From a virus: 22,198 nucleotides of DNA. Where the stretch lies: the IMG/VR virus record IMGVR_UViG_3300042905_003063, positions 1 through 22,198 of that record; one strand, 5' to 3'. The translations under genes and the position numbers were made by a program. Below, one piece after another: positions 2 through 19,918 of the stretch; the stretch's first letter is position 1, and each line of letters begins with the position of its first letter. Under the pieces are notes generated by a model. The model searched no databases. It saw nothing but the letters and a program-made list of their open reading frames with translations, and was not told the origin of the DNA.

Positions 2-676
2 GCCGTATCCGAGCGCGAACAAGCCCGCCACGAAGGCGTCAGCCCGTCGCTAATCCATCGCTGGCGCAAGCGAGGGATGCCCGCCGACTTGGAGGGGGGA
101 AGCCTGTGGCGTCAGCGTAACGCCGCCCGAGGCGGTAGCCGCCCCTCTGCTGCGCCCGTTACCGCACCGAGGGTGGAGACGCCACCCGCGCTGACCCCAG
201 CCCCACAGACGCCAGAGGAGCCCGAAGACCCAGACGCGACCAAGCAGGCTGTCGAGCTTGCCGAGCGCCCGGAGGAAATCGTCATCGGGGAACGCTCGTG
301 CCAAGAAACGCTCAAGGCGTTGCGGTCATCGCGTCAGTATTGCCAAAGCCGCATTGCCGCCTGTCACAAGCGCGGAGACGAGGCAATGGCCCGCCAGTGG
401 GTGCAGACCCTCAACAACATCGTCTCCCGCCAAGCCGCGATGGAAGACCGCTTGCGCGACATCTTGGAGCGGGACGCCAAGACCATGAGCGTCGAAGCCG
501 CCGAACGCACCTACCGCCAAGTCTTCACCGACCTACGCCAGAAGCTACTGGCCGCACCCGCCGCTCTTGCCGCGCAACTCAATCCGAACGATCCGATCCA
601 TGCCCAGGGGATCATGGAGAATTGGGTGCGCCTGCTTTTCAAAGAAACTCATGAAGGACAACGACAAGAAAATTGA
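2..676 (+). CDS. Phage terminase small subunit (Nu1-like), 5' partial
   Basis: The reading frame is open from the left edge, so the start codon lies outside the window; the ATG at 77 is internal. The first visible residues form a helix-turn-helix recognition element (GVSPSLIHRWRKRGMP), as in the DNA-binding N-termini of lambda Nu1-type small terminases that bind the packaging site. A Pro/Ala-rich linker follows. The helical C-terminal half (about 150 residues, from roughly codon 120 of the visible part) resembles the oligomerisation and large-subunit-binding region of these proteins. The position just upstream of a methyltransferase and a GpA-type large terminase supports the call. The last 26 nt overlap the next gene, suggesting translational coupling. 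It could also be a generic phage HTH protein, but position and architecture favour small terminase. Confidence 0.7.
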   Translation, partial: AVSEREQARHEGVSPSLIHRWRKRGMPADLEGGSLWRQRNAARGGSRPSAAPVTAPRVETPPALTPAPQTPEEPEDPDATKQAVELAERPEEIVIGERSCQETLKALRSSRQYCQSRIAACHKRGDEAMARQWVQTLNNIVSRQAAMEDRLRDILERDAKTMSVEAAERTYRQVFTDLRQKLLAAPAALAAQLNPNDPIHAQGIMENWVRLLFKETHEGQRQEN

Positions 677-1892
677 ACAAGTCGCCACGGCATTGCTGGT
701 GCCGTATGCGAAGAACGCCAAGAAACACGACGCCGCGCAAGTCGCCGCCATCGCCGGAAGCATCCGCGAGTTTGGCTTTAACAACCCCGTGCTGATCGAC
801 GCCGACAACGGCATCATCGCCGGACACGGGAGGGTGCTGGCCGCGCACCAGCTTGGCCTTGAGGCGGTGCCGTGCTTGCGCTTGACGCACTTGAGCGACA
901 CGCAAAAGCGCGCTTACATCTTGGCTGACAATCGGCTGGCCGAACTTGGCGGCGGATGGGATGCCGAGATGCTTGCCGCCGAGCTTGAGGCGCTATCGGC
1001 AGAGGGGATCACGATGGAGGAGATCGGCTTTGATGCCGACGCGCTGGAAGAGTTAGGCGCGGGGCTTGATGACGAAGGCAACCCCGAAGCGGACGCCGAG
1101 CCGCAGATCGACAAGGCCGAAGAACTCCGCGCCAAGTGGGGCGTTGAGCCGGGGCAGCTTTGGGAGCTTGGGGATCATCGGTTGCTGTGCGGGGATAGCA
1201 CGAAGAAGGAAGATGTGGAAAAGGCGCTGGGGGGGGCCTCACCTTTGCTCATGGTTACTGACCCACCCTATGGCGTCAGCTACGACGCAAGCTGGAGACT
1301 TGAAGCAGGAGTAAATAAACCGTGGCAAACGAGAGCCGAGGGCAAGGTTGAAAATGATGACCGCGCGGACTGGAAAGAGACGTGGGAACTTTTTCAAGGA
1401 AGCGTGGCCTACGTCTGGCACGGCGGATTGCACGCCGCCCAAGTTGCAAAAAATCTTGAAGAGGCAGGCTTTCAAATACGCAGCCAGATCGTCTGGTCAA
1501 AGCCGTCTCTTGTTATGGGTCGGGGCCACTACCACTGGCAGCACGAGCCGTGTTGGTATGCCGTCCGCTCTGGAAGGACTGCCGAGTGGGGAGGAGACAG
1601 GAAGCAGGCCACAATATGGAACATCGCAAACATGCATCGAACGCAAGGCAGTGTTGATGACGGTAAGACATTTCACTCCACGCAAAAGCCCGTCGAGTGC
1701 ATGGCCCGCCCGATCCGAAACCACGACAGCGAGTTTGTCTACGAACCCTTCAGCGGCAGCGGCACAACCATCATAGCCTGCGAGCAACTTGGCCGCAAAT
1801 GCCGCGCCATCGAGATCAGCCCCGCCTATGTCGCCGTGGCCCTGCAACGCTGGGCCGATGCCACGGGCAAGACGCCGAAGCTGGTGGCATGA
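651..1892 (+). CDS. ParB-domain DNA methyltransferase (beta-class N6-adenine/N4-cytosine type)
   Basis: A 413-residue protein if translated from the ATG at 651; longer upstream readings would run deep into the small terminase gene. Residues about 5-95 are a ParB/sulfiredoxin-like domain (IIAGHGRVLAAHQLG at 55-69). The methylase domain follows: WELGDHRLLCGDST at 171-184, catalytic motif IV DPPYG at 204-208, HSTQKPVE at 342-349, and the AdoMet-binding motif FSGSGTT at 367-373. Motif IV before motif I is the beta-class order, known for exocyclic amino methylation of adenine or cytosine. No restriction endonuclease is adjacent, so it is probably an orphan phage methylase protecting or marking DNA. 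It overlaps the small terminase by 26 nt and the large terminase by 4 nt (ATGA). A run of eight G at 1229-1236 lies just before DPPY. Target specificity cannot be read from sequence. Confidence 0.9.
   Translation: MKDNDKKIEQVATALLVPYAKNAKKHDAAQVAAIAGSIREFGFNNPVLIDADNGIIAGHGRVLAAHQLGLEAVPCLRLTHLSDTQKRAYILADNRLAELGGGWDAEMLAAELEALSAEGITMEEIGFDADALEELGAGLDDEGNPEADAEPQIDKAEELRAKWGVEPGQLWELGDHRLLCGDSTKKEDVEKALGGASPLLMVTDPPYGVSYDASWRLEAGVNKPWQTRAEGKVENDDRADWKETWELFQGSVAYVWHGGLHAAQVAKNLEEAGFQIRSQIVWSKPSLVMGRGHYHWQHEPCWYAVRSGRTAEWGGDRKQATIWNIANMHRTQGSVDDGKTFHSTQKPVECMARPIRNHDSEFVYEPFSGSGTTIIACEQLGRKCRAIEISPAYVAVALQRWADATGKTPKLVA
1229..1236 (+). repeat. G8 homopolymer tract inside the methyltransferase gene
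   Basis: Eight consecutive G residues span codons for Leu-Gly-Gly-Ala (residues 193-196), about ten codons before the catalytic DPPY motif. It is the longest homopolymer I saw in the window. Slippage by one base would truncate or scramble the catalytic domain. Poly-G tracts in methylase genes are a known basis of phase variation in some bacteria; whether this one varies is not visible here. Confidence 0.6.
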
Positions 1893-6637: not shown

Positions 6638-7489
6638 ATGGCTAACGTATTCGATTCCGGGCTGGTGGTCGCCACCATCTCGCAACAGGTTCAGACAGTC
6701 TTGGCTAACCGCCTTGCTCCTCTGCGCCTTTTCACCACTGACTTCAGCAATGAAGTTAAGAAAGCAAAGGACACCATTCAGGTGCCCATCGTCTCGGCAA
6801 CCAGCGCCACCGCTGTTAACCCGACCAATTTTGAACCCGGTTCCGATGTGACCGTTGGCAAAGCCACCGTCACCTTGGATCATGTGGCTCAGTTCTTCGG
6901 CATCAGCCAGAGCGACCTCGCTCTCGGCCATCGCCTTGAGAACCTCATCAAGATCAACGTGGACGCTCTGGCCGACAAGCTCTGGAGCATCGCCATTACG
7001 CCCGTGACCACGGTCAACTTCGGCGCGGCGACTGTCACCACGACCACGATCACTCCGGGCAGCGGCCATCTGGCCTCGCTGTGGAGCAAGATCAGCAAGT
7101 CCAACAACAAGGGCTTGGTCGTTACTCCGTCGATTTACTCGGCGCTCATCCCGACCAACGCGGACTTCCTGCCGCTTCAAAACGGTGCCTACGGTTTCGA
7201 CCAGGGCATTTACTACGCGAACAGCTTCAGCGGTGCGGTTGCGGGCCTCGACGGCTTCGCTTGCTCACGCGAGGCAGTGTGCGTTGCCTCGGCCAAGCCG
7301 ATGATCGACCCTGCGGTTTCCTCGCAGTTCCAGATCAGCGACCAAGTTGTCACCCTCGATCAGTTGGGTCTCAGCGTTTACTGGAACGTGTGGGGCAGCA
7401 CCAACAATCGTCAGGTCAACGCCTCGATTGAAGTCATGTTCGGCGCGGCCCCCGGCCTCACGTCCGACACGATGGCTCTGGTCATCTAA
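6638..7489 (+). CDS. Probable major capsid protein
   Basis: A 283-residue protein directly after protease/scaffold and before transcription terminators, the expected slot for the most abundant head protein. The sequence is rich in Thr, Val, Ala and Asn with little low complexity. An N-terminal helical segment (SGLVVATISQQVQTVLANRL) leads into beta-rich stretches such as DTIQVPIVSATSATAV and VTLDHVAQFFGISQSDL. These features are compatible with an HK97-fold capsid subunit, at the short end of the family. No lambda gpD-like decoration gene lies before it. The A/C-rich leader and downstream terminators fit a strongly expressed gene. I assign it mainly by position, size and composition, not by a diagnostic motif. 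Confidence 0.75.
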   Translation: MANVFDSGLVVATISQQVQTVLANRLAPLRLFTTDFSNEVKKAKDTIQVPIVSATSATAVNPTNFEPGSDVTVGKATVTLDHVAQFFGISQSDLALGHRLENLIKINVDALADKLWSIAITPVTTVNFGAATVTTTTITPGSGHLASLWSKISKSNNKGLVVTPSIYSALIPTNADFLPLQNGAYGFDQGIYYANSFSGAVAGLDGFACSREAVCVASAKPMIDPAVSSQFQISDQVVTLDQLGLSVYWNVWGSTNNRQVNASIEVMFGAAPGLTSDTMALVI

Positions 7490-7503: not shown

Positions 7504-7540
7504 CTCCCGCCGTGTGAGTGGACGCGGCGGGAGTTTCATT
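7504..7540 (+). terminator. Rho-independent terminator 1 after the capsid gene
   Basis: A perfect 9-bp inverted repeat, CTCCCGCCG (7504-7512) and CGGCGGGAG (7525-7533), encloses a 12-nt loop and is followed by TTTCATTT. It begins 14 nt after the capsid stop. A smaller hairpin, TGCTC-TTAC-GAGCA (7541-7554), follows directly. Confidence 0.8.
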
Positions 7541-7555
7541 TGCTCTTACGAGCAG

Positions 7556-7591
7556 GGGTCACGGTTCCACTCGCCGTGGCCCTTCCTTTTT
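7556..7591 (+). terminator. Rho-independent terminator 2 (tandem)
   Basis: GGGTCACGG (7556-7564) pairs with CCGTGGCCC (7574-7582) over 9 bp, including one G-T wobble, around a 9-nt loop. It is followed by TTCCTTTTT. With terminator 1 it forms a tandem block between the capsid gene and the glycosyltransferase gene. Confidence 0.75.
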
Positions 7592-7598
7592 GTATTCA

Positions 7599-9320
7599 GT
7601 GGCGAAAATTCATCTCGGCATCATTTGCGGCAACGAAGCGGAAAACATCACCCGCTTTCTCAACAGCTTTCAGCCGCACGTTGATTCCGTTTCCGTAGTC
7701 CGCGCCTGCGGCAACCAGCCGCCCGACGAGACGCTGGACATCGCCAAAGCCCGTGGCTGCATCGTGGGCGAATACCACAACGGCGAGGCAGGCAAAGATT
7801 GGCCCCACGTCGATAACTTCGCCGCCGCCCGCAACCAGACCTTTGCCCTCGCACCCGAAGGCACCGACTGGATTATGTGGGCCGATTGCGACGATCTGCT
7901 GACCCCTACGGGCGCGGAAGTCCTGCGGATGATACGCGAGGGGCATCCGATGGAAGGGGGCGCTATTTTCTCGCCCTACATCACCAACGCCAGCGGCAGC
8001 TACGCCCGCCGCGTTCGGTTGGTCAAAGCCAGCGCTTACAAACGCTGGATCAATGCCGTCCACGAGGACATCGAGACGCACGAAGGCACGGAAAACTCAT
8101 GGTGCGCGGAAATGCAAGTCATGCATATGCCCGAAAACAACAAGCGCGGCAGCGTCACCCGGAACCGCAATATCTTGGAGAGCATACCGCCCGAAGAACG
8201 CACGGGGCGGGAATGGTGGTTTTTGTTTAGAGAGTGCGAGATTCAGCAGGACATCCCGACCGCGATGCACGCCGCGCTCATCGCTACCGGGCGCGACGAT
8301 CTGGGCAACGAGGAAAAGTTCGTTGCCTACCAAACCATAGGCCGCTGGCTGAAGGATGTGGACGAGGCCGAGCGCCCTTTGTTGGAAGCTGTTCGCCTCA
8401 TGCCGCAGCGCAGGGAAGGATATGCCGAGCTTGCCAAGCTGCACCTGGCTCGCGGCAAGGCCGACAAGGCGCTGGCCTACGCGAACGCGATGGAAGCGCA
8501 GCCCATGCCAGACGAGCCAAGCTGGACGCATGATGCTTCGCTTTACGGGTGGCGGGCGCATGACCTAAAGACGCTGGCCCTCGCCAAAGCAGGCCACACC
8601 AAGGAAGCGGAGCGCCTCCGCAAAGAATGGCTCAAGCGGTTAAAGCCCCGAATTGCCGTGGGGCATCCAGCGGGCAGAGGAGCCAAGGACATTGAAGTGC
8701 GCGATTTGTGGTTGAGCCGTGCCGCGCACCCGGAGCGCGTGGCCTACTATTTCGGCATCTGCGAGTCGGACGCTGAGATTGTCGAGCAGTTGAAGCATTA
8801 CCCGCACGGATTAGCTCCCGCCGTTCCAGAGGGCCACAGCAGCGCCGTGGCGAACTACAACGCCGCCGCCCGCGCAGCCACCGCATCGGGAGCGCGCATC
8901 TTCATTATGAGTCAGTCGGACGTTTATCCGCCTCACGGATGGGACGAGCAGATTGTCCAGGCCATGCAGCCGCACATGGACGCGCCCACCGTGCTGCACG
9001 TTTCGGATGGATTCCGTGGGCCGACCGATCCGCTGATGACGATCATGTGCTACAACTGGCGCTGGTGGCTTGGCCGGGAGTGGTTGCTTTGCCCGGAGTT
9101 CGATGGCTACTGGAGCGACACGGAGTTCAGCTTTCGGGCTTACCGCGACGGGGTGGTCAAAGATGCTCGCCACATCAAATTCTTTCACGACCACCCCGCT
9201 TTTACAGGCTCGGCCTCGGATGAGGTGTATATGCGCCAGCAGAACCCAGAGGCCAACGAGCGCGGCAAAGCTATCTTCCGACGCCGCAACCCTGACGCTG
9301 AAGCAAAGGGATGGACGTGA
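7599..9320 (+). CDS. Two-domain family 2-type glycosyltransferase
   Basis: A 573-residue protein if started at the GTG at 7599; a longer reading from 7518 would begin inside terminator 1 and is rejected. The N-terminal GT-A domain has LGIICGNEAENITRFL at 6-21, FAAARNQTFALA at 74-85, a DxD motif in WADCDDLL (94-101) and a VHE motif at 154-156, all typical of GT2 enzymes that use nucleotide sugars. A TPR-like helical middle (about 255-345) is followed by a second glycosyltransferase-like domain (about 350-573) with FIMSQSDVYPPHGWDEQIV and FDGYWSDTEFSFRAY. It probably acts in the host cytoplasm on a phage or host acceptor. It overlaps the next gene by 10 nt. There is no Shine-Dalgarno sequence or TTTGACA before the chosen start, so the exact start is uncertain. 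Confidence 0.8.
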   Translation: MAKIHLGIICGNEAENITRFLNSFQPHVDSVSVVRACGNQPPDETLDIAKARGCIVGEYHNGEAGKDWPHVDNFAAARNQTFALAPEGTDWIMWADCDDLLTPTGAEVLRMIREGHPMEGGAIFSPYITNASGSYARRVRLVKASAYKRWINAVHEDIETHEGTENSWCAEMQVMHMPENNKRGSVTRNRNILESIPPEERTGREWWFLFRECEIQQDIPTAMHAALIATGRDDLGNEEKFVAYQTIGRWLKDVDEAERPLLEAVRLMPQRREGYAELAKLHLARGKADKALAYANAMEAQPMPDEPSWTHDASLYGWRAHDLKTLALAKAGHTKEAERLRKEWLKRLKPRIAVGHPAGRGAKDIEVRDLWLSRAAHPERVAYYFGICESDAEIVEQLKHYPHGLAPAVPEGHSSAVANYNAAARAATASGARIFIMSQSDVYPPHGWDEQIVQAMQPHMDAPTVLHVSDGFRGPTDPLMTIMCYNWRWWLGREWLLCPEFDGYWSDTEFSFRAYRDGVVKDARHIKFFHDHPAFTGSASDEVYMRQQNPEANERGKAIFRRRNPDAEAKGWT

Positions 9321-11921: not shown

Positions 11922-12485
11922 ATGGACTCGCTGGCCGCAGAGGCGTTTCTAAACGCCGAGCATCGCATATACGGCCTGCGGATGCGCCCGCTTTCTTTGG
12001 GCCATGCGTTTGCCTTAGAGGCGCTATCCTCTCCTTTTTATCACGGCCAGCTTGGCTCAGAGCAAGAGTTGCGTCTGGCTGCATGGATCTGCGCACATGA
12101 TCCTTTGACGGTTCCGCGAGCTTCTGGCTGGCGGTATTTGGCGTGGAATCTTGCGACCAAATATTTCGATTTTGACCAGCAAGTCAGCCGATGGGTTGTT
12201 TATTCAGCCGACTACGTTGCCCCGCCGCAAATGTGGTCAAAAGTAAAAACTAAAGAAGAAATCAAACAGTCTCGCATCCCCGGAGCAATATCTTCTGTGG
12301 TGCGCCTAATGCGTCTTGGCATGACAGAAAAGCAAGCGTGGGCAACCCCGGTTGGAGCGGCCACTTGGTATGAGGCGGCATATTTTGAAAGCGAGGCCGG
12401 GACTGCATTGGACATCGTAACTGACTCGGAGCGCACGGCGATTGCGCGGCACAAGCAAAAGCAAAAGGCTAAATCTAATGGCTGA
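11922..12485 (+). CDS. Candidate tail assembly chaperone
   Basis: A 187-residue protein immediately before the tape measure, the normal position of tail assembly chaperones (lambda gpG/gpGT). It has an N-terminal segment LRMRPLSLGHAFALEAL and a C-terminal pattern with MTEKQAWATPVGAATWYEAA, reminiscent of tail chaperone proteins. It ends in a Lys/Gln-rich tail. The stop overlaps the tape measure ATG by 8 nt (ATGGCTGA). Lambda makes an extended chaperone by -1 frameshifting; here the next frame is +1 relative to this gene and I see no convincing slippery heptamer, so a single product is more likely. Confidence 0.55.
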   Translation: MDSLAAEAFLNAEHRIYGLRMRPLSLGHAFALEALSSPFYHGQLGSEQELRLAAWICAHDPLTVPRASGWRYLAWNLATKYFDFDQQVSRWVVYSADYVAPPQMWSKVKTKEEIKQSRIPGAISSVVRLMRLGMTEKQAWATPVGAATWYEAAYFESEAGTALDIVTDSERTAIARHKQKQKAKSNG

Positions 12486-13995
12486 AGTAAACGTCAAAAT
12501 CAAAGCGCAAAACCAGACTCGCACTGGTTTTCAGCAGGCCCTTGGAGATGCGCGCAAATTTGGGTCAGAAGCAAATCGCTCTCTGAAAGGCGCTTTTGCA
12601 TCTATTGGTAGCGACATAAGAAGCAGCATCGGCGGCGCGCTGGCTGGAATTGCCTCGATTGGAGCCATCAAAACAATCGTTGATCAATTTGGCCGCATTA
12701 ACGACCTGTCCCAAACTTTTGGCATCTCTGCCGAGGCATTGCAGCGATTTGGGCAAGTCGCCGCCGAATCGGGCGGAAGCATGGAGGAGCTTGCGCGTTT
12801 TATGGCGCGCGTCGAGCGCAGCGTTGTTTCGGCCCAAGGCGGAACGGGTGCGGCAGCGGAAGCGTTTGCCGCGCTCGGACTTAGCGCCAGCCAACTACAA
12901 CGATTGTCACCAGAGCAAAAACTGTTGGCTATTGCAGACGCGCTGGCGTCTTCCTCTGACCAAGGGCGCGCCCTTGCGGCCACGTTTGATATTGGCGGAA
13001 GGGGCGCGCTGAATCTGGTCAATTTTCTAAAGCAGGGCTCTGACTCCATTAAAGAACAGGCAAGCGGCATGAATGTGGCCTCTGCGGATATTGTCGCCCG
13101 CGTTGACGAGATCGGTGATAGATTTTCGCGTTTGGGCCAGCAAATAAGCGTTGGGCTTGGCCCGGTCATTGCCAGGCTTGGCTCGGCATTTCTGGCTGTT
13201 TTTGAAGTTGTTAAAGCGGGAGTCGAAAGGCTGGCGTCATCAATCACAACGTCGATATTGGCGGCTGGTCGAGTTGCCACAGGAGACTTTGCGGGAGCGG
13301 GGCAGCTAATGTCACAAGAGGCGCAAGCAGCGCGGGACGAGTGGAATCAGTTAAAGCAAACCCTTTCCACTGTCACAACGCCGCGAGTTCGCGGGCCGCA
13401 AGGACTTGGCGGGGCCGCAGAAGGCATTGACGGCACAAGCAACAGCGCATCCAAAGCAATTGCCGACGAAGCCTCAATGCGTCGGCAAATTGAAGAACAG
13501 CGGCGAGCAAATGAGCTTATAGGATTGTCGGCAGAACAAGAGCTTGTCGCGCTAAAGCGCGAGCTTCGTTCAATGGAAGCGCAATACGGAGACGAGCTTG
13601 GCAAAAACAACGAGAAGGCGCTTCAGCGTTATCGCTTGCTCGGCCAAATCAAAAATCTGGAAGACCAAATAGCGCGAGCGGCAAGCACAGAATTTGGCCC
13701 CGGAACAGCCCAAGCGGCGGCGGGTGGGTTTCGCGTTGATGCCGCTGAGTTTGCCAGACAGCAACAAGAGGAGCTTTTGCGGCAGGCGCAGTCGGCCCGT
13801 CCAGAAATGATCGGATCGACAGGCGCATCCGCCCTCCAACGCATCGGCTTTGCCTCAAACGAGTTTTTCGACACCCGCCGCTCGCTTGGCCCGGCAGAAA
13901 TTGTCGAGGCGATCAAGCGCAACGCGGCATTTACCAAAGAAGTGGCAGACATCCTCAAAAAAGGCGAACCCTTAGTCTTGCCCTCATCCAACTAA
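12478..13995 (+). CDS. Tail tape measure protein
   Basis: A 505-residue, largely helical protein rich in Ala, Gln, Ser and Gly, with a hydrophobic patch near residues 40-65 (SIGGALAGIASIGAIKTIVD) and another around 220-260. It also has long charged helices in the C-terminal half (MRRQIEEQRRANELIGLSAE). This composition and the position after the chaperone identify it as the ruler for tail length. By the usual ~0.15 nm per residue rule it would set a tail of roughly 75 nm, short for a siphovirus. The ATG at 12478 is preferred over an upstream TTG at 12442 because an AAAAGG Shine-Dalgarno-like sequence sits about 11 nt before it. Confidence 0.85.
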   Translation: MAEVNVKIKAQNQTRTGFQQALGDARKFGSEANRSLKGAFASIGSDIRSSIGGALAGIASIGAIKTIVDQFGRINDLSQTFGISAEALQRFGQVAAESGGSMEELARFMARVERSVVSAQGGTGAAAEAFAALGLSASQLQRLSPEQKLLAIADALASSSDQGRALAATFDIGGRGALNLVNFLKQGSDSIKEQASGMNVASADIVARVDEIGDRFSRLGQQISVGLGPVIARLGSAFLAVFEVVKAGVERLASSITTSILAAGRVATGDFAGAGQLMSQEAQAARDEWNQLKQTLSTVTTPRVRGPQGLGGAAEGIDGTSNSASKAIADEASMRRQIEEQRRANELIGLSAEQELVALKRELRSMEAQYGDELGKNNEKALQRYRLLGQIKNLEDQIARAASTEFGPGTAQAAAGGFRVDAAEFARQQQEELLRQAQSARPEMIGSTGASALQRIGFASNEFFDTRRSLGPAEIVEAIKRNAAFTKEVADILKKGEPLVLPSSN

Positions 13996-14000
13996 CTCCT

Positions 14001-14654
14001 ATGGCACAAATCGAAACAACAGGCGGCGGATTTCAAGACAGCGGCGACAGGAAAGTCATCCGAAAGGTTTACGTTTCCACGGGCGGGGGGCTCATCAATA
14101 TTCCAGCAAGCGAACAGGGTTTCCCGCTGTCCTCCGTCAGCGCCAGCGAAGAACCCGGCGGCATCCGCCGCGCCGTGGCCGAATACTCTCAAGGCGGCGA
14201 GGGGGGCGCGTCTTACAACGCTTACGGCAAGCGGGTCGAGCTTACGGGCGGGACGCGGGAGGTGCCGATTCAAACGCACGCATCCTTTAGCACATTAACC
14301 GAGACACAGTTGGCCGAGGTTGAGACGGCCATTGAAAACAAACAGCCCGACGTGTGGAAAAGTTTTGATGACGAAAAGCAGCAGCTTCTCTACAACTTTC
14401 TTCGCAAAAAAGTTGAGTATGTGTTGGCTCCCGCCATTGTTGGGAGAATTTCGCAAATAGAATCCACCCTGCCGAGCTTGACCCCCATCGCAAAGCGAGC
14501 AAACCCATCCGAGCTAAATGCTCCACCTAAAACCTTCTGGGTTTGCACCGCCATCACGGCCAACCCTATCGGCACGCGCTACGAAGTCACCCGCGAATAC
14601 ACGCTCAACTTCAGCGAGTCGGATGATGTGGAGCTTCTCTACGGCTGGAGCTAA
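14001..14654 (+). CDS. Unrecognised tail protein 1
   Basis: A 217-residue protein six nt after the tape measure stop. I do not recognise a family. The N-terminal third is Gly-rich (STGGGLINIPASEQGFPLSS, ASEEPGGIRR), the centre has a helix (TETQLAEVETAIENKQPDVW) and the C-terminus alternates strands (YEVTREYTLNFSESDDVELL). In lambda-like phages the genes here (M, L, K, I) make the tail tip, so a distal-tail role is a reasonable inference. I do not see the Cys/His protease residues of gpK or other tail-tip hallmarks. The stop is 3 nt before the next start. Confidence 0.6.
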   Translation: MAQIETTGGGFQDSGDRKVIRKVYVSTGGGLINIPASEQGFPLSSVSASEEPGGIRRAVAEYSQGGEGGASYNAYGKRVELTGGTREVPIQTHASFSTLTETQLAEVETAIENKQPDVWKSFDDEKQQLLYNFLRKKVEYVLAPAIVGRISQIESTLPSLTPIAKRANPSELNAPPKTFWVCTAITANPIGTRYEVTREYTLNFSESDDVELLYGWS

Positions 14655-14657
14655 CCC

Positions 14658-15302
14658 ATGTCCGACTTCGCGCAAATCCGATTCCTGCCCAACAGGCCGC
14701 TCTTGCGCGAACTGAGCGCGGATCGTCTCAATACGATCCTGCAAGAGATTAAACGCAACAAGCCCAAGGGCGAGCGCGGCATCACGGTCAGGCAAGACGG
14801 CACTGGCACCTACATTGGCCTCGCCGCTTCCCTGCCACGCGGCGGCGGCACCTCTACCCCAGCAACCACACACCCATTCCAAATCACCAGCTTCGCAGAT
14901 CCCGAAAGCGATCAAGAGTCACCGTCTTATTTGGCAACGGTGCGCCCCGGAGCTATCAACCAAATCATTTCAGCATCGCATTTCGACGGCGCTGATCTTG
15001 CCCAGATTTCCATAGACACCGACACGCTGACTTACGTTGTTCTGACCGCCACGTCCAACGGCAAGGAGATCACCAGCGCCACGATTTCTACGCAAACTGA
15101 AGCGCCAGAGACGCAGACCCCCACGCTTTTCGCGCTTCCAACCGAAATGAAATACACGCTTGGCTTGGTTTACAACGACAACGCTCACCAGATCATTACG
15201 AACAACATCAATGTGTCGGGCAAGATTGTTTACACTAAGGACAGGGCCACGGCAGCACAACCGGGGCAACTTCCTTTTGAAATTTGGTATGTCTGGCAAT
15301 GA
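14658..15302 (+). CDS. Unrecognised tail protein 2
   Basis: A 214-residue protein of unknown family. The N-terminus has a helix (LRELSADRLNTILQEIKRNK) followed by a short basic Gly-containing segment, then beta-rich, Thr-rich sequence up to the aromatic end PFEIWYVWQ. The layout (short helical docking region plus beta body) resembles tail-tip or appendage proteins. It shares ATGA with the next, Ser/Thr-rich protein, so the two are probably made in fixed ratio and may interact. Function is not assignable from sequence. Confidence 0.55.
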   Translation: MSDFAQIRFLPNRPLLRELSADRLNTILQEIKRNKPKGERGITVRQDGTGTYIGLAASLPRGGGTSTPATTHPFQITSFADPESDQESPSYLATVRPGAINQIISASHFDGADLAQISIDTDTLTYVVLTATSNGKEITSATISTQTEAPETQTPTLFALPTEMKYTLGLVYNDNAHQIITNNINVSGKIVYTKDRATAAQPGQLPFEIWYVWQ

Positions 15303-17203
15303 TCTCGTGGACGGAAACCGCTCCCTACACGGCACTGACCAGTGCGTCTTCGCATTCAGCGGGTGCAACATACGCCTCGGCCAGCTACGGCAGCACAGGC
15401 CAAGCCCTAAAAATCACCAGCGCCGACAGCGACGGCCTTACTTATATTACCATAACAGCTTCTGGGTCATCTTTCGTCGATAAAACAACTTTCCGAAGAA
15501 CTACCTCCACCAGCAGTTCCAGTTATGTCATGACCGATGCCGCCAACGGGGCGCGGACTGAAAGCAACACATTTGAATCGGGCTTGACAGAATACTACGA
15601 CGGCGGCTCTGACATTGTATCAACATTGGAGCCCGGCTCCTCCTCGCGCCAAGGATCAAGCGCCACGCGGCCAAGCCAAACAACCACTGCCACAACCGTC
15701 TTTGCTGCTGGCTCTATAACAGCCACAACAGCCGTGAGCGGCACCGTTGCAACAACGACACTCCGCAGCGGATCAACTGCGCCGACCATAAGATTTACGC
15801 AATCGGCCTCGACCTTCACCACCGCAATAGCAACGCAAGTAAGCAAAGCCGCCACGCAAACCACATCACTGTCCAGCACTTACACCAACTACGGCAATGG
15901 CCCTTTCGGGGGCGTGGGTCGCAGAACAAACATCATGCCAGAGCCGCACGAAGTGATTTGGGTAATGACAACCACAACCAGCGCGGCGGCGGAACTGACT
16001 GCGATTGCGACCTCTTACACCAGCTCGTTTAGCCTCTCGCCAATCACATACATCACGGCTCGCCCCGCCGCCATCACCACCGCGTTTTACGAAGTCAGCG
16101 AAGAAACTGTAGAACTAACAAGAGCGACCACCGCGAGGTCTGGCATTACGCAAACACGCGCTTTTCCGCAAAATAATCGCTTCCCCATGCAAACGTATTC
16201 CGACATTCGCAATACCGAAACAACCGTATCGACGGATGTTGGCTCTGTAGTAAGGGCGCGGGTGTTTGGAAGCAGCACCACGCACCCCGGAATCGGCGTG
16301 ACAACAATGCAGGGCCGCTTCGGTGGGCTCACTTACCACCAAGAGTACACGACAACAACAACGCGCTCAAAGTTTACGGACGGATTGAGTTTAGAAGAAG
16401 GGAGGAATAGTTACTCTACCCAATACAATGATGGCCCTACTTCTGTGACAGAAATTTCACTGGGTTCGGCCACGCTACAAGGAAGTGTCGAAACTTGGGG
16501 CTTGGCGGCCATCGACAACAGCAGTCCTGTTTCGGCGATTGAAACCGCTTTCACGGACGGCTACGCGATTCTGACCAATGTAACGCAGCCAGCGACTCTT
16601 TTGGGGCTATCCCCTGCGGTTTCCGTATTCATGCCCATCGTCACCAATCGAGCGTGGCCGCGAATCATCGCACCGCAGCTTGGAACCAACAGCCTTGGCA
16701 TTTCGCAAGGAAGCTCGACGTGGTCTTACAATCAAATCGGCGTAACTCAAAGCAGTGTGGGAACGGCCCCGGACGCCACCATTGTCACAACAAGCGCATC
16801 GTGGACTCAAGAAGGGACGGCTGGCACCGCGCAGTTCGATGATCCCCCCGGCAAGCCTGGCGCATTTGTTGAAGCATTGGGACTCTTGCGCTCGCCAGTG
16901 ACGCTTTTTTCTGGAGAGCGCGTGGGGGCGCAACGCATCGGCGGCGTGCCCGCCACGGGCGCAAGCAACATTAGCGCCGTGATGCCTCCGGGAAAATATT
17001 TTACGGCAACGGGATCGTCTTCGACTTTTGTGACGTTCAATTCGCCAACAACCCTTGCTGGAACCCTGCAGACGGCCTTTATTCCACAGCCATTGTTTAT
17101 TGCTCTGGAAAGAGACACCACGCAAGGCGTATTCAATCCTGCGGGAACCTTATCCGCTTCCAGAAACTTGCTTCCCTACAGCAGCACCTTCTTTCCGCTT
17201 TGA
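15299..17203 (+). CDS. Large Ser/Thr-rich tail protein, possible glycan acceptor
   Basis: A 634-residue protein starting at the ATG at 15299 (ATGA overlap). By hand count the first 200 residues contain about 83 Ser/Thr (about 41%), with runs such as TTSTSSSS and many TTT stretches. I see no Cys. The sequence is beta-prone with few charges, compatible with an extended tail-tip or fibre protein. It occupies the place where lambda would have J, yet is much shorter and shows no recognisable J domains. It is followed directly by a glycosyltransferase-like gene whose TTTGACA signal contains this gene's stop codon (17201-17203). The acceptor role is inference; the family is unrecognised. Confidence 0.6.
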   Translation: MISWTETAPYTALTSASSHSAGATYASASYGSTGQALKITSADSDGLTYITITASGSSFVDKTTFRRTTSTSSSSYVMTDAANGARTESNTFESGLTEYYDGGSDIVSTLEPGSSSRQGSSATRPSQTTTATTVFAAGSITATTAVSGTVATTTLRSGSTAPTIRFTQSASTFTTAIATQVSKAATQTTSLSSTYTNYGNGPFGGVGRRTNIMPEPHEVIWVMTTTTSAAAELTAIATSYTSSFSLSPITYITARPAAITTAFYEVSEETVELTRATTARSGITQTRAFPQNNRFPMQTYSDIRNTETTVSTDVGSVVRARVFGSSTTHPGIGVTTMQGRFGGLTYHQEYTTTTTRSKFTDGLSLEEGRNSYSTQYNDGPTSVTEISLGSATLQGSVETWGLAAIDNSSPVSAIETAFTDGYAILTNVTQPATLLGLSPAVSVFMPIVTNRAWPRIIAPQLGTNSLGISQGSSTWSYNQIGVTQSSVGTAPDATIVTTSASWTQEGTAGTAQFDDPPGKPGAFVEALGLLRSPVTLFSGERVGAQRIGGVPATGASNISAVMPPGKYFTATGSSSTFVTFNSPTTLAGTLQTAFIPQPLFIALERDTTQGVFNPAGTLSASRNLLPYSSTFFPL

Positions 17204-17221: not shown

Positions 17222-18244
17222 GTGCTGGCTATAGCTACATACGCGACCAAGAGCTATTTTTACTGCTGGCCGCAGTTTTTGAGGCGCATCGCCGCCGCAG
17301 CCGGGCATCACGCCGAAGCGCATTTTGTTCTGGCGACAGACCAAAGTGACGAGGCCAAGCAGGCCGTCGAAGCAGCGCGCCACGAACTGCCCGAAGGGTG
17401 GAGAATCCAAGCCATTACCCTGCCGCTCGATGACGGGGGAGCCGAGGGCAAGGACTACAAGGTCGAGGCGCAAATGCGGATTGCTGCTTTGCAGGGGGCC
17501 GCGTTTGCCGCTGCGAGGAAGATCCGCGCCACCGCCCTGTGGAGCGTGGAGGCCGACAACCTTGTCCCGGCAGACGCGCTCCGGGTGGCCGAGTGGGCGC
17601 TGACTATGCCGCAGGCGGATGGGTCAAACTTTTACGATGTCGCGGCGGTCACTTACCCGAATGGATTATTCCTCGGAGGCAACGGCACCCCACAAAATCC
17701 CATTGCGGAGGACTTCACGGAAAAGGAACGCAAGCTACCGCCGCGCCTCATCCGTGCGCTGGAAGCCTGCCGCGAGCGGCTAAAGGACTGCAAGGACAAG
17801 GCCATGGGCGAGCGCGAGGGCAAGCGGTTGGGGCGTCTGCATGAGCGCGTGAAAAAATGCCCGCCAGACGGCAATGTGTTTGAAGTCACAGCCAAGCACG
17901 GCTGGCGCAGGCGCGGGTGGATGGACTTTGCTTACCCCGGAATCGGCAGGGGAGCCATTGTCCGATCCGATTGGTGCGGCCTCGGTTGCACACTCCTTTC
18001 GGCCAAGGCATTGGCGCTGGCAACCTTTGAGGGCTACGACGGCAGGGGAACACAAGACCTGTTCCTTTGTTGGCACAGATGGCACCCCGCAGGGCTGCGG
18101 ATTGCCTGCATCCCGCATTGTGTCGCCGACCATGTAAAGCGGGACAAAGACGGCAAGATCGTCCACCACCGCGCTTATCACGAAACCGAGGGCGAATACC
18201 GGGGCCACCTTCGCCAACGGCAACAACCTTGGATGCCATGTTAA
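17222..18244 (+). CDS. Glycosyltransferase-like protein
   Basis: A 340-residue protein with a GTG start at 17222. The N-terminal half looks like a GT-A fold: LAIATYATKSYFYCWPQFL at the start, then HAEAHFVLATDQ, and an acidic metal-site-like motif LWSVEADNLVP at 106-116. The second half has RSDWCGLGCTLLSAKALAL, GYDGRGTQDLFLCWHRW and HCVADHVK, reminiscent of the acceptor and catalytic-base side of such enzymes. A Lys/Arg-rich helical insertion lies between (about residues 165-210). It directly follows the Ser/Thr-rich tail gene and precedes DUF3431-like and RmlC-like genes, which supports a sugar-related role. The DxD motif is non-canonical, so activity is uncertain. Confidence 0.6.
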   Translation: MLAIATYATKSYFYCWPQFLRRIAAAAGHHAEAHFVLATDQSDEAKQAVEAARHELPEGWRIQAITLPLDDGGAEGKDYKVEAQMRIAALQGAAFAAARKIRATALWSVEADNLVPADALRVAEWALTMPQADGSNFYDVAAVTYPNGLFLGGNGTPQNPIAEDFTEKERKLPPRLIRALEACRERLKDCKDKAMGEREGKRLGRLHERVKKCPPDGNVFEVTAKHGWRRRGWMDFAYPGIGRGAIVRSDWCGLGCTLLSAKALALATFEGYDGRGTQDLFLCWHRWHPAGLRIACIPHCVADHVKRDKDGKIVHHRAYHETEGEYRGHLRQRQQPWMPC

Positions 18245-18248
18245 TTTT

Positions 18249-18929
18249 ATGAAAAAGGAAATCGTCATCGCCGCGCACAGAGAGCGCATTGACTGGTTGC
18301 CCGATCATTGGCGACCCATCACCACTATTTACCGCTGCGGGGATGCAAGCATTGGCAGCGCAAACAAAGCTCACCGAGCGCATGGCGACGATCTATACGC
18401 GCAGCTTGATCGAATGCGGGCCGTCATGGAGTTCGTCCGCGAAATGGCGCAAGTGAGCAAGCAGGACGCGCCGATGGCGGAACTTGAGTGTTTTGCCGAA
18501 AAGCGCGGAGACAACTGCACGAAGGGGCGCGAGGCCGAACAATGGCTCAACCATATCATTTGGCGATACGACACGCTGGCCGATGTCACGGTGTTTTTGC
18601 AGGGGCACCCTCACGACCATTGCTATGACTTCAAAAACGTGGTCGAGGATCTTGGCTATGTAACTTTTACGACCATTCCGCGAACGGACAAGCCGGGGAC
18701 GGCAGGAAAAGAGGCAGAGTTTTGCGGCAAGTTCTGGAAGGAATTGGGGCAGACCGATCTCAAGCAAGTGTGGTGGAAGCCGGGGGCGCAGTTTGCCGCC
18801 AGCCGCGAGGCCATCCGATCCCGCCCCCGCGAGTGGTATGAGCAAGTGCAAAAGTTGGCTCGGAGGACTGACCGAAGCGGGGAAATCTGCGAGCGAACTT
18901 GGTGGAACATCTTGGGTTGCCCATGTTAG
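18249..18929 (+). CDS. DUF3431-like protein
   Basis: A 226-residue protein starting 4 nt after the previous stop, at an ATG preceded by an A/T-rich stretch. It shows two patterns I associate with DUF3431: REAEQWLNHIIWRYDTLAD followed by VTVFLQGHPHDH (about 94-124), and WWKPGAQFAASREAIRSRP (about 175-193) followed by WYEQV. Biochemical function of the family is not established to my knowledge; its members often occur near glycosyltransferases, and its fold may be related to them. Context here, between a glycosyltransferase-like gene and an RmlC-like gene, points to glycan work. The C-terminus overlaps the start of the next gene by 7 nt. Confidence 0.65.
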   Translation: MKKEIVIAAHRERIDWLPDHWRPITTIYRCGDASIGSANKAHRAHGDDLYAQLDRMRAVMEFVREMAQVSKQDAPMAELECFAEKRGDNCTKGREAEQWLNHIIWRYDTLADVTVFLQGHPHDHCYDFKNVVEDLGYVTFTTIPRTDKPGTAGKEAEFCGKFWKELGQTDLKQVWWKPGAQFAASREAIRSRPREWYEQVQKLARRTDRSGEICERTWWNILGCPC

Positions 18930-19351
18930 CCGAGATTCGCCCACTCACGGCCCGCTTCGATGAGCGGGGCAGGCTTACCGAAATCTTCCGGGCCTCGGAT
19001 GACGCTCACGGATTCGGCCAAGCCTACATTACCACTTGCTCGGCGGGCGTGGTAAAGGCGTGGCACCGTCATCGGCTGCAAGTGGATCGTTGGTATTGCG
19101 TAGCGGGCGCGGCGAAAGTCGGCATCTGGGACGCGGAGGCCAAGCGGGGCGAGACAGTGATCCTTTCCGCCGACACGCCGCAGCTACTCATCATCCCCGC
19201 AGGGTTGTTTCACGGCTTCACGCCATGCCACGGCCACGCCTCGGCGGCGATTCTAAACCTTCCTTCCCGCGAATACGACCCCGCCAATCCCGATGAGGAG
19301 CGCCGGGGGCCGCTCGCCTTTCCGTTTCGGTGGACTGTGGACTCGCGCTGA
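18923..19351 (+). CDS. RmlC-like cupin (dTDP-4-dehydrorhamnose 3,5-epimerase-related)
   Basis: A 142-residue protein started at the ATG at 18923; an upstream TTG at 18899 is less likely. It shows the RmlC/COG1898 signature order: DERGRLTEIFR at 13-23, KAWHRHRLQVDRWYCV at 45-60 with His48 in the catalytic-His position, GAAKVGIWD at 62-70, and IPAGLFHGFTP at 91-101, then YDPANPDEERR. Known relatives epimerise dTDP-4-keto-sugars on the way to dTDP-rhamnose or related deoxysugars. It is shorter than typical RmlC (about 180 residues), and a 3,4-ketoisomerase-type role is possible. RmlA, B and D are not in the window, so it would have to tap host nucleotide sugars. Confidence 0.75.
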   Translation: MLAEIRPLTARFDERGRLTEIFRASDDAHGFGQAYITTCSAGVVKAWHRHRLQVDRWYCVAGAAKVGIWDAEAKRGETVILSADTPQLLIIPAGLFHGFTPCHGHASAAILNLPSREYDPANPDEERRGPLAFPFRWTVDSR

Positions 19352-19381: not shown

Positions 19382-19918
19382 ATGCGCGTCTACATCAATC
19401 TCGACACCAACGAACCCGTCGTTTCGCCCGTCCTTACCCAGCGGGTCAACACGTTCTATTTCGTGCGGCGGGACGTGGTTCCCGTTGAGGTTCAATTCGT
19501 CCGCAATGGGGCCGTGGTCGAGCTTGGGGCGGGCGCAACTGGTGCTATCGGCCTCAAAAAGACCTACACCGGGTCATTTCTTGCCAACGACAGCGATTGG
19601 ACAAAAAGCGGCACGGGCACGGCCACGGTTTACACGTTCGATCTCAACCTCAACACCACTGAGCTTTCTGCCGAGTTTAGCCCTGACGCCTCCACGGATT
19701 CAATTACCTGCAAGCTGGAAATATCGTGGTCGGTCAGCGGCACGACCTCCAGCACCATGCCGACGAGCGCGGTGGTTTATAACGATGTGATTCGCGGGAC
19801 GGAGGGCGCTCCCAACTTTGCCACCGTCATGTCGCAGTTCGATCTTCGCTCTCCTGACAACGCCACATGGCGGATCACCATCGATAACAGCGGAGTCCTG
19901 ACAGCCACCAAGCAATAA
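19382..19918 (+). CDS. Predicted tail appendage/baseplate protein
   Basis: A 178-residue, beta-rich, Thr-rich protein. The N-terminal segment VVPVEVQFVRNGAVVELGAG resembles the start of baseplate-upper-type and fibre-anchoring modules, in which a strand pair with 'V.V...NG..V.L' recurs. The rest alternates strands with small polar loops (TKSGTGTATVYTFDLNLNTT). It opens the fibre region after the sugar cluster and has its own TTTGACA element. No enzymatic motif is seen. The family assignment is tentative. Confidence 0.5.
   Translation: MRVYINLDTNEPVVSPVLTQRVNTFYFVRRDVVPVEVQFVRNGAVVELGAGATGAIGLKKTYTGSFLANDSDWTKSGTGTATVYTFDLNLNTTELSAEFSPDASTDSITCKLEISWSVSGTTSSTMPTSAVVYNDVIRGTEGAPNFATVMSQFDLRSPDNATWRITIDNSGVLTATKQ

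What the first reader, a model, noticed from the sequence alone, without database searches (positions are those of the whole stretch)
15299..17203. Extremely Ser/Thr-rich tail protein in place of a J-like tip protein
A hand count gives about 41% Ser+Thr over the first 200 residues, with apparently no Cys and few charged residues. It sits where the central tail-tip protein is expected, but no known domain is recognisable, and glycosyltransferase-like genes follow it. It could be an O-glycosylated adhesin-like tail tip.
Basis: partly seen in the sequence, partly recalled or inferred. Interest (0 to 1): 0.55.

Follow-up and report, generated by a model that had tools for sequence, protein, structure and literature searches.

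The report
Phage tail protein with dedicated glycosyltransferase
A very serine- and threonine-rich tail protein of an uncultured bacterial virus is inherited as one swappable cassette with its own probable sugar-transferring enzyme and half of an adaptor protein, which suggests that these viruses sugar-coat a fast-changing part of their tail.

Summary
ORF 15299-17203 (634 aa) is 41.5% Ser+Thr over its first 200 residues, has no Cys, and matches no known family. It is a real gene: relatives show dN/dS of about 0.1-0.46. Alone it finds almost no relatives, but its neighbours do. In all 80 IMG/VR contigs kept for the next gene (17222-18244, a GT-A-fold glycosyltransferase by predicted structure), the enzyme lies beside an S/T-rich ORF (21-39%), usually upstream. 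In 13 contigs the two are tail-to-tail on opposite strands. The C-terminal half of the preceding gene (14907-15299) travels with them: 75 of 80 contigs, the other five cut by contig ends. Six contigs with the same tail backbone lack all three parts and carry a shorter, non-S/T-rich ORF in the slot. A search with the adaptor half alone found one new contig, and it held the whole trio. Most likely mechanism (inferred, 0.65): the enzyme O-glycosylates the S/T-rich tail protein. The tip or adhesin role is plausible but unproven, and the protein's structure prediction failed. Phage virion glycosylation is known; this three-part tail cassette looks like a new variant.

The parts
15299..17203 (+). 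S/T-rich hypervariable tail protein, 634 aa (proposed glycosyltransferase substrate; possible tip or adhesin)
17222..18244 (+). Dedicated GT-A-fold glycosyltransferase (named GT17222 here), 340 aa, very conserved
   Evidence: absent from 50,697 phage records
14907..15302 (+). C-terminal half of the adaptor protein t14658, which travels with the S/T ORF and GT17222
14658..14906 (+). N-terminal part of t14658: shared by phages with and without the cassette (tail-anchoring side, inferred)
18249..18929 (+). DUF3431 protein (accessory, optional; also in 4 of 43 close relatives)
18923..19351 (+). RmlC-like / Polysacc_synt_C cupin (optional sugar-nucleotide enzyme, inferred)
14001..14654 (+). Conserved small tail protein: upstream backbone flank used to fetch relatives
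19382..19918 (+). Conserved downstream flank (S/T 24%), present with or without the cassette
12478..13995 (+). Tape measure protein (places the region in the tail operon)

Best explanation
The S/T-rich ORF is a surface-exposed tail protein at or near the tip. It is O-glycosylated on its many Ser/Thr residues inside the infected cell by the soluble GT-A enzyme encoded next to it (17222-18244). The preceding small protein is an adaptor: its N-terminal part fits the phage's own tail and its C-terminal half fits the S/T-rich protein. The adaptor half, the S/T-rich protein and the enzyme are exchanged between phages as one cassette; the cupin and DUF3431 genes may alter the donor sugar or the glycan. 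Shown: the linkage, the co-replacement, purifying selection and the predicted GT-A fold. Inferred: the substrate, the O-linkage, the virion location, and the role in adsorption or shielding.
For: (1) Among the 80 GT17222 contigs kept of 102 found, 79 have an ORF of 300 aa or more beside the enzyme with S+T 21-39% (73 of 79 at 25% or more), against a median of 14.3% in 188 other ORFs. The 80th shows the cut-off C-terminal end of one, 24% S+T. (2) In 13 contigs the pair is convergent on opposite strands instead of co-directional, so a shared transcript alone does not explain the linkage. (3) Contigs fetched without using the enzyme: 26 have both, 6 have neither, 0 have one alone (Fisher 1e-6, not corrected for relatedness). 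Trees need 4-5 switches, at least 3 forced by well-supported branches. The 6 without it lack the enzyme anywhere in the contig. (4) The adaptor C-terminal half was found in 75 of 80 (63 of 68 contigs not used to train the model; the 5 misses are contig ends) and in 0 of 6 contigs without the cassette. In 213 genomes of one order it occurs in 2, both of which carry the enzyme. (5) A search with the adaptor half alone found 9 contigs, one of them new; it holds adaptor, an 823-aa 34% S/T ORF and a 48%-identical enzyme. (6) GT17222 models as GT-A (pLDDT 79); Foldseek's best PDB match is human collagen galactosyltransferase ColGalT1, a protein O-glycosyltransferase (E 1e-8; VIA Z 19.1, 3.2 A over 234 residues). 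(7) Most dN/dS values in related pairs are 0.1-0.46.
Against: No biochemical or proteomic evidence exists. The structural match to ColGalT1 is tied with Mnn9 (Z 18.6) and close to other GT-A enzymes that act on glycans, so the acceptor type is not shown. No GT17222 match appears in PDB by sequence; the window's copy has no Pfam match and only 7 of 26 members hit a GT2 model weakly. The S/T ORF model is uninformative. Three enzyme-linked ORFs are only 21-23% S/T, and 8 of 188 unlinked ORFs are 25% or more. One chromosomal GT fragment (L141) has no S/T ORF. The S/T lag-2 spacing typical of strands is significant in the family but not in the window protein alone.
Confidence: 0.65

Rival explanations
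1. The S/T-rich composition is ordinary for a beta-rich tail protein. The linked enzyme modifies something else: host surface glycans (receptor alteration), the adaptor, or another tail protein.
For: 8 of 188 unlinked ORFs also reach 25% S/T. The family shows an S/T lag-2 excess (1.15-fold), as expected of strands. The neighbouring small tail genes are also moderately S/T-rich. GT-A enzymes near this fold include polysaccharide-acting ones.
Against: The enzyme and the S/T-rich ORF are replaced together in close relatives and stay adjacent in both orientations. A host-acting enzyme would have no reason to follow one tail protein and one adaptor half.
Confidence: 0.2
2. The genes merely hitch-hike: a recombination hotspot between conserved flanks swaps whole blocks, with no biochemical link between enzyme and tail protein.
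For: The cassette lies between conserved flanks (14001 and 19382 products) and is swapped at least 3 times.
Against: Adjacency also holds in phages with little or no detectable homology to the window's backbone (13 convergent-clade and 24 distant contigs) and in metagenome-assembled-genome contigs down to about 43% enzyme identity, with no separation in the 80 contigs examined.
Confidence: 0.05
3. The S/T-rich protein is glycosylated, but as an antigenic or defence shield along the tail rather than as a receptor-binding tip.
For: Known mycobacteriophage virion glycosylation alters immune recognition (Freeman 2023, seen only as a citation in the passages).
Against: The slot lies after the tape measure with an adaptor in front, and its proteins vary like adhesins; this does not exclude a shield.
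Confidence: 0.1

Closest known systems
Phage-encoded virion glycosylation in mycobacteriophages (Freeman et al. 2023, Cell Host Microbe; not held, seen as cited in PMC11256854 and PMC13313380)
   Same: Phage-encoded glycosyltransferases are thought to modify the phage's own structural proteins.
   Different: There (passage) the glycans are on major capsid proteins. Here a dedicated enzyme is tied to a hypervariable S/T-rich tail protein and an adaptor half. GT17222 had no match in 50,697 phage records, a set recalled to include those phages.
Serine-rich repeat glycoprotein adhesins of Gram-positive bacteria (Fap1, GspB, L. reuteri SRRPs; abstracts)
   Same: An S/T-rich adhesin with dedicated glycosyltransferases from its own gene cluster, glycosylated inside the cell.
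   Different: No tandem repeats were reported in the ORF and no export system was seen in the window; this is a phage tail gene; the predicted enzyme fold is GT-A, whereas the SRRP GtfA/GtfB enzymes are GT-B (recalled).
Collagen hydroxylysine galactosyltransferase ColGalT1 (PDB 9evj)
   Same: Best predicted-fold match of GT17222: GT-A, aligned over residues 1-340.
   Different: 13-14% identity; no sequence-profile match; eukaryotic, much larger, different acceptor.
Lambda J / Tal-type central tail-tip proteins
   Same: Location after the tape measure in the tail operon.
   Different: No profile match, far more S/T-rich, two small genes intervene, and no usable structure model.

Membership tests
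GT-A glycosyltransferases (GT17222) | Rossmann-like nucleotide-sugar fold with a DXD-type metal motif after a central strand | tested here: met
   Model m8650995b647a (pLDDT 79): 930 of 999 compared chains at Z 8 or more, the 50 listed ones being glycosyltransferases or synthases with GT domains. Invariant E110 and D112 (VExD) lie at the end of strand 105-110. Reading VExD as a DXD variant is inference; catalysis not tested.
Protein O-glycosyltransferases | Transfers sugar to Ser/Thr/Hyl of a polypeptide | not testable with these tools
   Only the fold resemblance to ColGalT1 and LH3 and the genetic linkage to an S/T-rich ORF.
Phage virion glycosylation systems | Phage-encoded glycosyltransferase genetically tied to a structural gene | tested here: met
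   80 of 80 contigs; co-loss in 6 contigs. That the S/T ORF is a structural gene is inferred from its place in the tail operon.
Phage virion glycosylation systems | Glycans detected on virion proteins | not testable with these tools
   No virions available.
Serine-rich repeat adhesins | Long Ser/Thr-rich tandem repeats | tested here: not met
   No tandem array was found within 15299-17203.
J / Tal-type tail-tip proteins | Profile or fold match to a known tip family | tested here: inconclusive
   No profile match for the ORF or its relatives in A2; structure model unusable.
Diversity-generating retroelement targets | Reverse transcriptase gene in the genome | tested here: not met
   0 of 22 related contigs match RVT_1; the records may be fragments and the window's own record was not in this search.

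The most novel reading that the evidence does not exclude
The sugar, not the protein surface, is the conserved functional element. A nearly frozen enzyme (60-92% identity across very different phages) paints glycans on a tail protein whose sequence is free to change beyond recognition as long as it stays Ser/Thr-rich. The phage would present a glycan (as a ligand for host lectins or surface proteins, or as a mask) on an exchangeable scaffold, with a standard adaptor joint letting unrelated tails plug in the same glycan-display module.
Probability: 0.25. Interest if true: 0.85.

Novelty: new variant of a known kind. Interest (0 to 1): 0.62.

Why it matters
If true, it gives a natural enzyme-substrate pair for protein O-glycosylation by phages, with clear cassette boundaries: the break lies inside the adaptor gene. 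It makes testable whether phages use sugars on their tails for adsorption or for hiding, and it gives a rule (adaptor half, S/T-rich ORF, GT) for finding such tails in metagenomes. GT17222 and both tested S/T-rich proteins had no match in 50,697 phage records, so this biology appears to be missing from that collection of phage records.

Tried and rejected
Direct homology search of the ORF alone gave nothing: 0 loci in viral contigs, 0 in phage records, 0 in PDB. An alignment query (A3) returned only the already known L061 contig.

AlphaFold2 of the ORF with an alignment of 14 sequences failed (pLDDT 29.9, pTM 0.19).

Diversity-generating retroelement: no reverse transcriptase in 22 contigs, so not favoured.

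Gene artefact: rejected, because the frame is kept and dN/dS is 0.10-0.46 in the related pairs; one pair with very little divergence gives 0.82.

Iterative HMM search from the window protein stopped at one relative, L061. Profile-profile comparison adds one group of 6 (97.8% probability, C-terminal part). Many S/T-rich ORFs in the same slot (28 clusters among 67 sequences) are not demonstrably homologous to each other by sequence. A shared C-terminal RN is present in 39 of 67 against 2.6 in shuffles. My first motif (NE-V-LY type) matched 19 of 67 (2.7 shuffled) and missed the window protein.

A disordered mucin-like stalk is not supported by charge-hydropathy, a crude measure. Positional retention of S/T in aligned pairs is high (82%) but partly expected from abundance, so I do not lean on it.

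Host: one contig lies in a metagenome-assembled genome named Chthoniobacter and two in betaproteobacterial ones. Binning errors are possible, so no host is claimed. Literature: searches showed no description of this cassette. Only search listings (titles and starts of abstracts) were seen, except passages of PMC11256854 and PMC13313380. Freeman 2023 itself is not held.

Full report
What is there. The window is a 22,198-base IMG/VR virus record with a tailed-phage late operon: terminase, portal, protease, head genes, tape measure at 12478-13995, small tail proteins at 14001 and 14658, then the ORF in question, glycan-related genes and fibre-like genes. ORF 15299-17203 starts at an ATGA overlap with the preceding gene and codes for 634 aa. 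Ser+Thr is 41.5% in residues 1-200 and 31% overall; there is no Cys. No family library recognises it and it has no tblastn match in 50,697 phage records.

Finding relatives through neighbours. The products of 14001, 11922 and 19382 gave 20, 12 and 21 loci in IMG/VR, and 17222 gave 80 kept of 102. In the same slot these phages carry S/T-rich ORFs of about 480-860 aa. Most are unalignable with the window's by BLAST even when the neighbouring enzyme is 90% identical; the one clear match is L061 (33% over 171 residues). They fall into 28 clusters of 67 sequences. Related pairs show dN/dS of about 0.1-0.46, with one nearly identical pair at 0.82. The family often ends in a conserved RN motif (39 of 67; 2.6 expected), which the window protein shares.

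The enzyme next door. 17222-18244 is strongly conserved: the 25 other members aligned share 62-90% identity with it and many invariant residues, including the E and D of VExD and the TQDL stretch. AlphaFold2 with these members gives pLDDT 79 and pTM 0.73. Foldseek's top PDB matches are human ColGalT1 structures (E 1e-8). VIA-align gives Z 19.1, 3.2 A over 234 residues for 9evj, tied with Mnn9 at 18.6 and followed by many GT-A enzymes. It is therefore a GT-A glycosyltransferase by predicted fold; the acceptor cannot be read from this. It is absent from 50,697 phage records and rare in the collection of 84,980 prokaryote genomes (3 loci).

Linkage. Of the 80 enzyme contigs, 79 have an adjacent ORF of 300 aa or more with 21-39% S/T (73 at 25% or more), against a median of 14.3% in 188 other ORFs. 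The remaining one is cut by the contig end but shows the C-terminal piece. In 13 contigs the two genes are convergent. All three metagenome-assembled-genome contigs, with the enzyme down to 43% identity, show the same arrangement, and so does one more genome (L140). A chromosomal partial enzyme (L141) without an S/T ORF is the only exception seen.

Natural replacement. Among contigs fetched without using the enzyme, 26 have both genes, 6 have neither and none has only one; after removing near-duplicates 23 and 5. The 6 (L006, L007, L008, L018, L126, L130) keep the same flanks but carry one ORF of 222-296 aa at 15-21% S/T in the slot, and no enzyme anywhere in the contig (the profile search confirms this for 5 of them). 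On trees of two flanking proteins the state changes 4-5 times, at least 3 forced by well-supported branches. These tests treat related phages as separate points, so the Fisher value (1e-6) overstates the certainty.

The adaptor. The 14658 product is a two-part protein. Its N-terminal part (up to residue 78-100) matches in all 19 cassette phages and all 6 others that I compared; residues 105-214 match in 14 of 19 and 0 of 6. A profile of that half, built from 14 sequences (12 of them from contigs of the 80), finds it just before the S/T-rich ORF in 75 of 80 contigs (63 of 68 not used for training). The five misses end at the contig edge, and the 6 cassette-free contigs have none. In distant phages the N-terminal part differs while the C-terminal half is kept. 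In 213 genomes of one bacterial order only two carry this half, and both carry the enzyme. As a blind test I searched IMG/VR with the half alone: of 9 contigs one was new, and it holds adaptor, an 823-aa S/T 34% ORF and a 48%-identical enzyme in that order.

Reading. The cassette is adaptor half, S/T-rich protein and glycosyltransferase. The simplest mechanism is that the enzyme decorates the S/T-rich protein before assembly and the adaptor attaches it to whichever tail the phage has. The RmlC-like cupin (32 of 43 close relatives, 12 of 13 convergent ones, 0 of 24 distant ones) and DUF3431 (4 of 43) are optional, as is a sulfotransferase in one distant locus (L136), so glycan finishing may vary. 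A parallel pairing exists at the capsid: GT7518, next to the major capsid protein, changes type together with that protein (both types in 25 loci, redundant by contig) and is kept when the tail cassette is lost.

Limits. Nothing here shows a sugar, a virion location or receptor binding. The S/T-rich protein's fold is unknown. The comparison with mycobacteriophage virion glycosylation rests on passages citing Freeman 2023. That with SRR adhesins rests on abstracts in a listing plus recall.

Noticed in passing
window 7518-9320 and 6638-7489: A two-domain glycosyltransferase next to the major capsid protein; its sequence type tracks the capsid type across 25 loci (capsid 76-97% with enzyme 67-83%, capsid 23-24% with enzyme 33-37%), as if it were a dedicated capsid glycosyltransferase. 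It also weakly resembles SunS peptide S-glycosyltransferase.
   Followed up: partly
L085:912-3723: Two extreme repeat proteins (TETGTETQTSTQTN repeats, 41% S/T; SSSRSQSGSQSN repeats, 51% S/T) followed by a glycosyltransferase of Pfam group 1, in a phage that also carries the GT17222 gene.
   Followed up: partly
L136:10338-11129: A sulfotransferase gene and a DUF3431 homologue downstream of the cassette enzyme in a betaproteobacterial metagenome-assembled-genome contig: possible further glycan decoration.
   Followed up: no
L021 against window: A contig with portal 100% and capsid 97% identical to the window but GT7518 only 73% and an S/T-rich ORF only 27% identical: very sharp mosaic boundaries.
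   Followed up: no
L006, L007, L008, L126, L130 slot ORFs (for example L007:9330-10199): Short alternative proteins (217-296 aa) that replace the S/T-rich protein; no PHROGs match at E 1.
   Followed up: partly
window 567-1892: ORF that looks like a ParB-like plus DNA methyltransferase fusion upstream of the terminase (read by eye, not searched).
   Followed up: no
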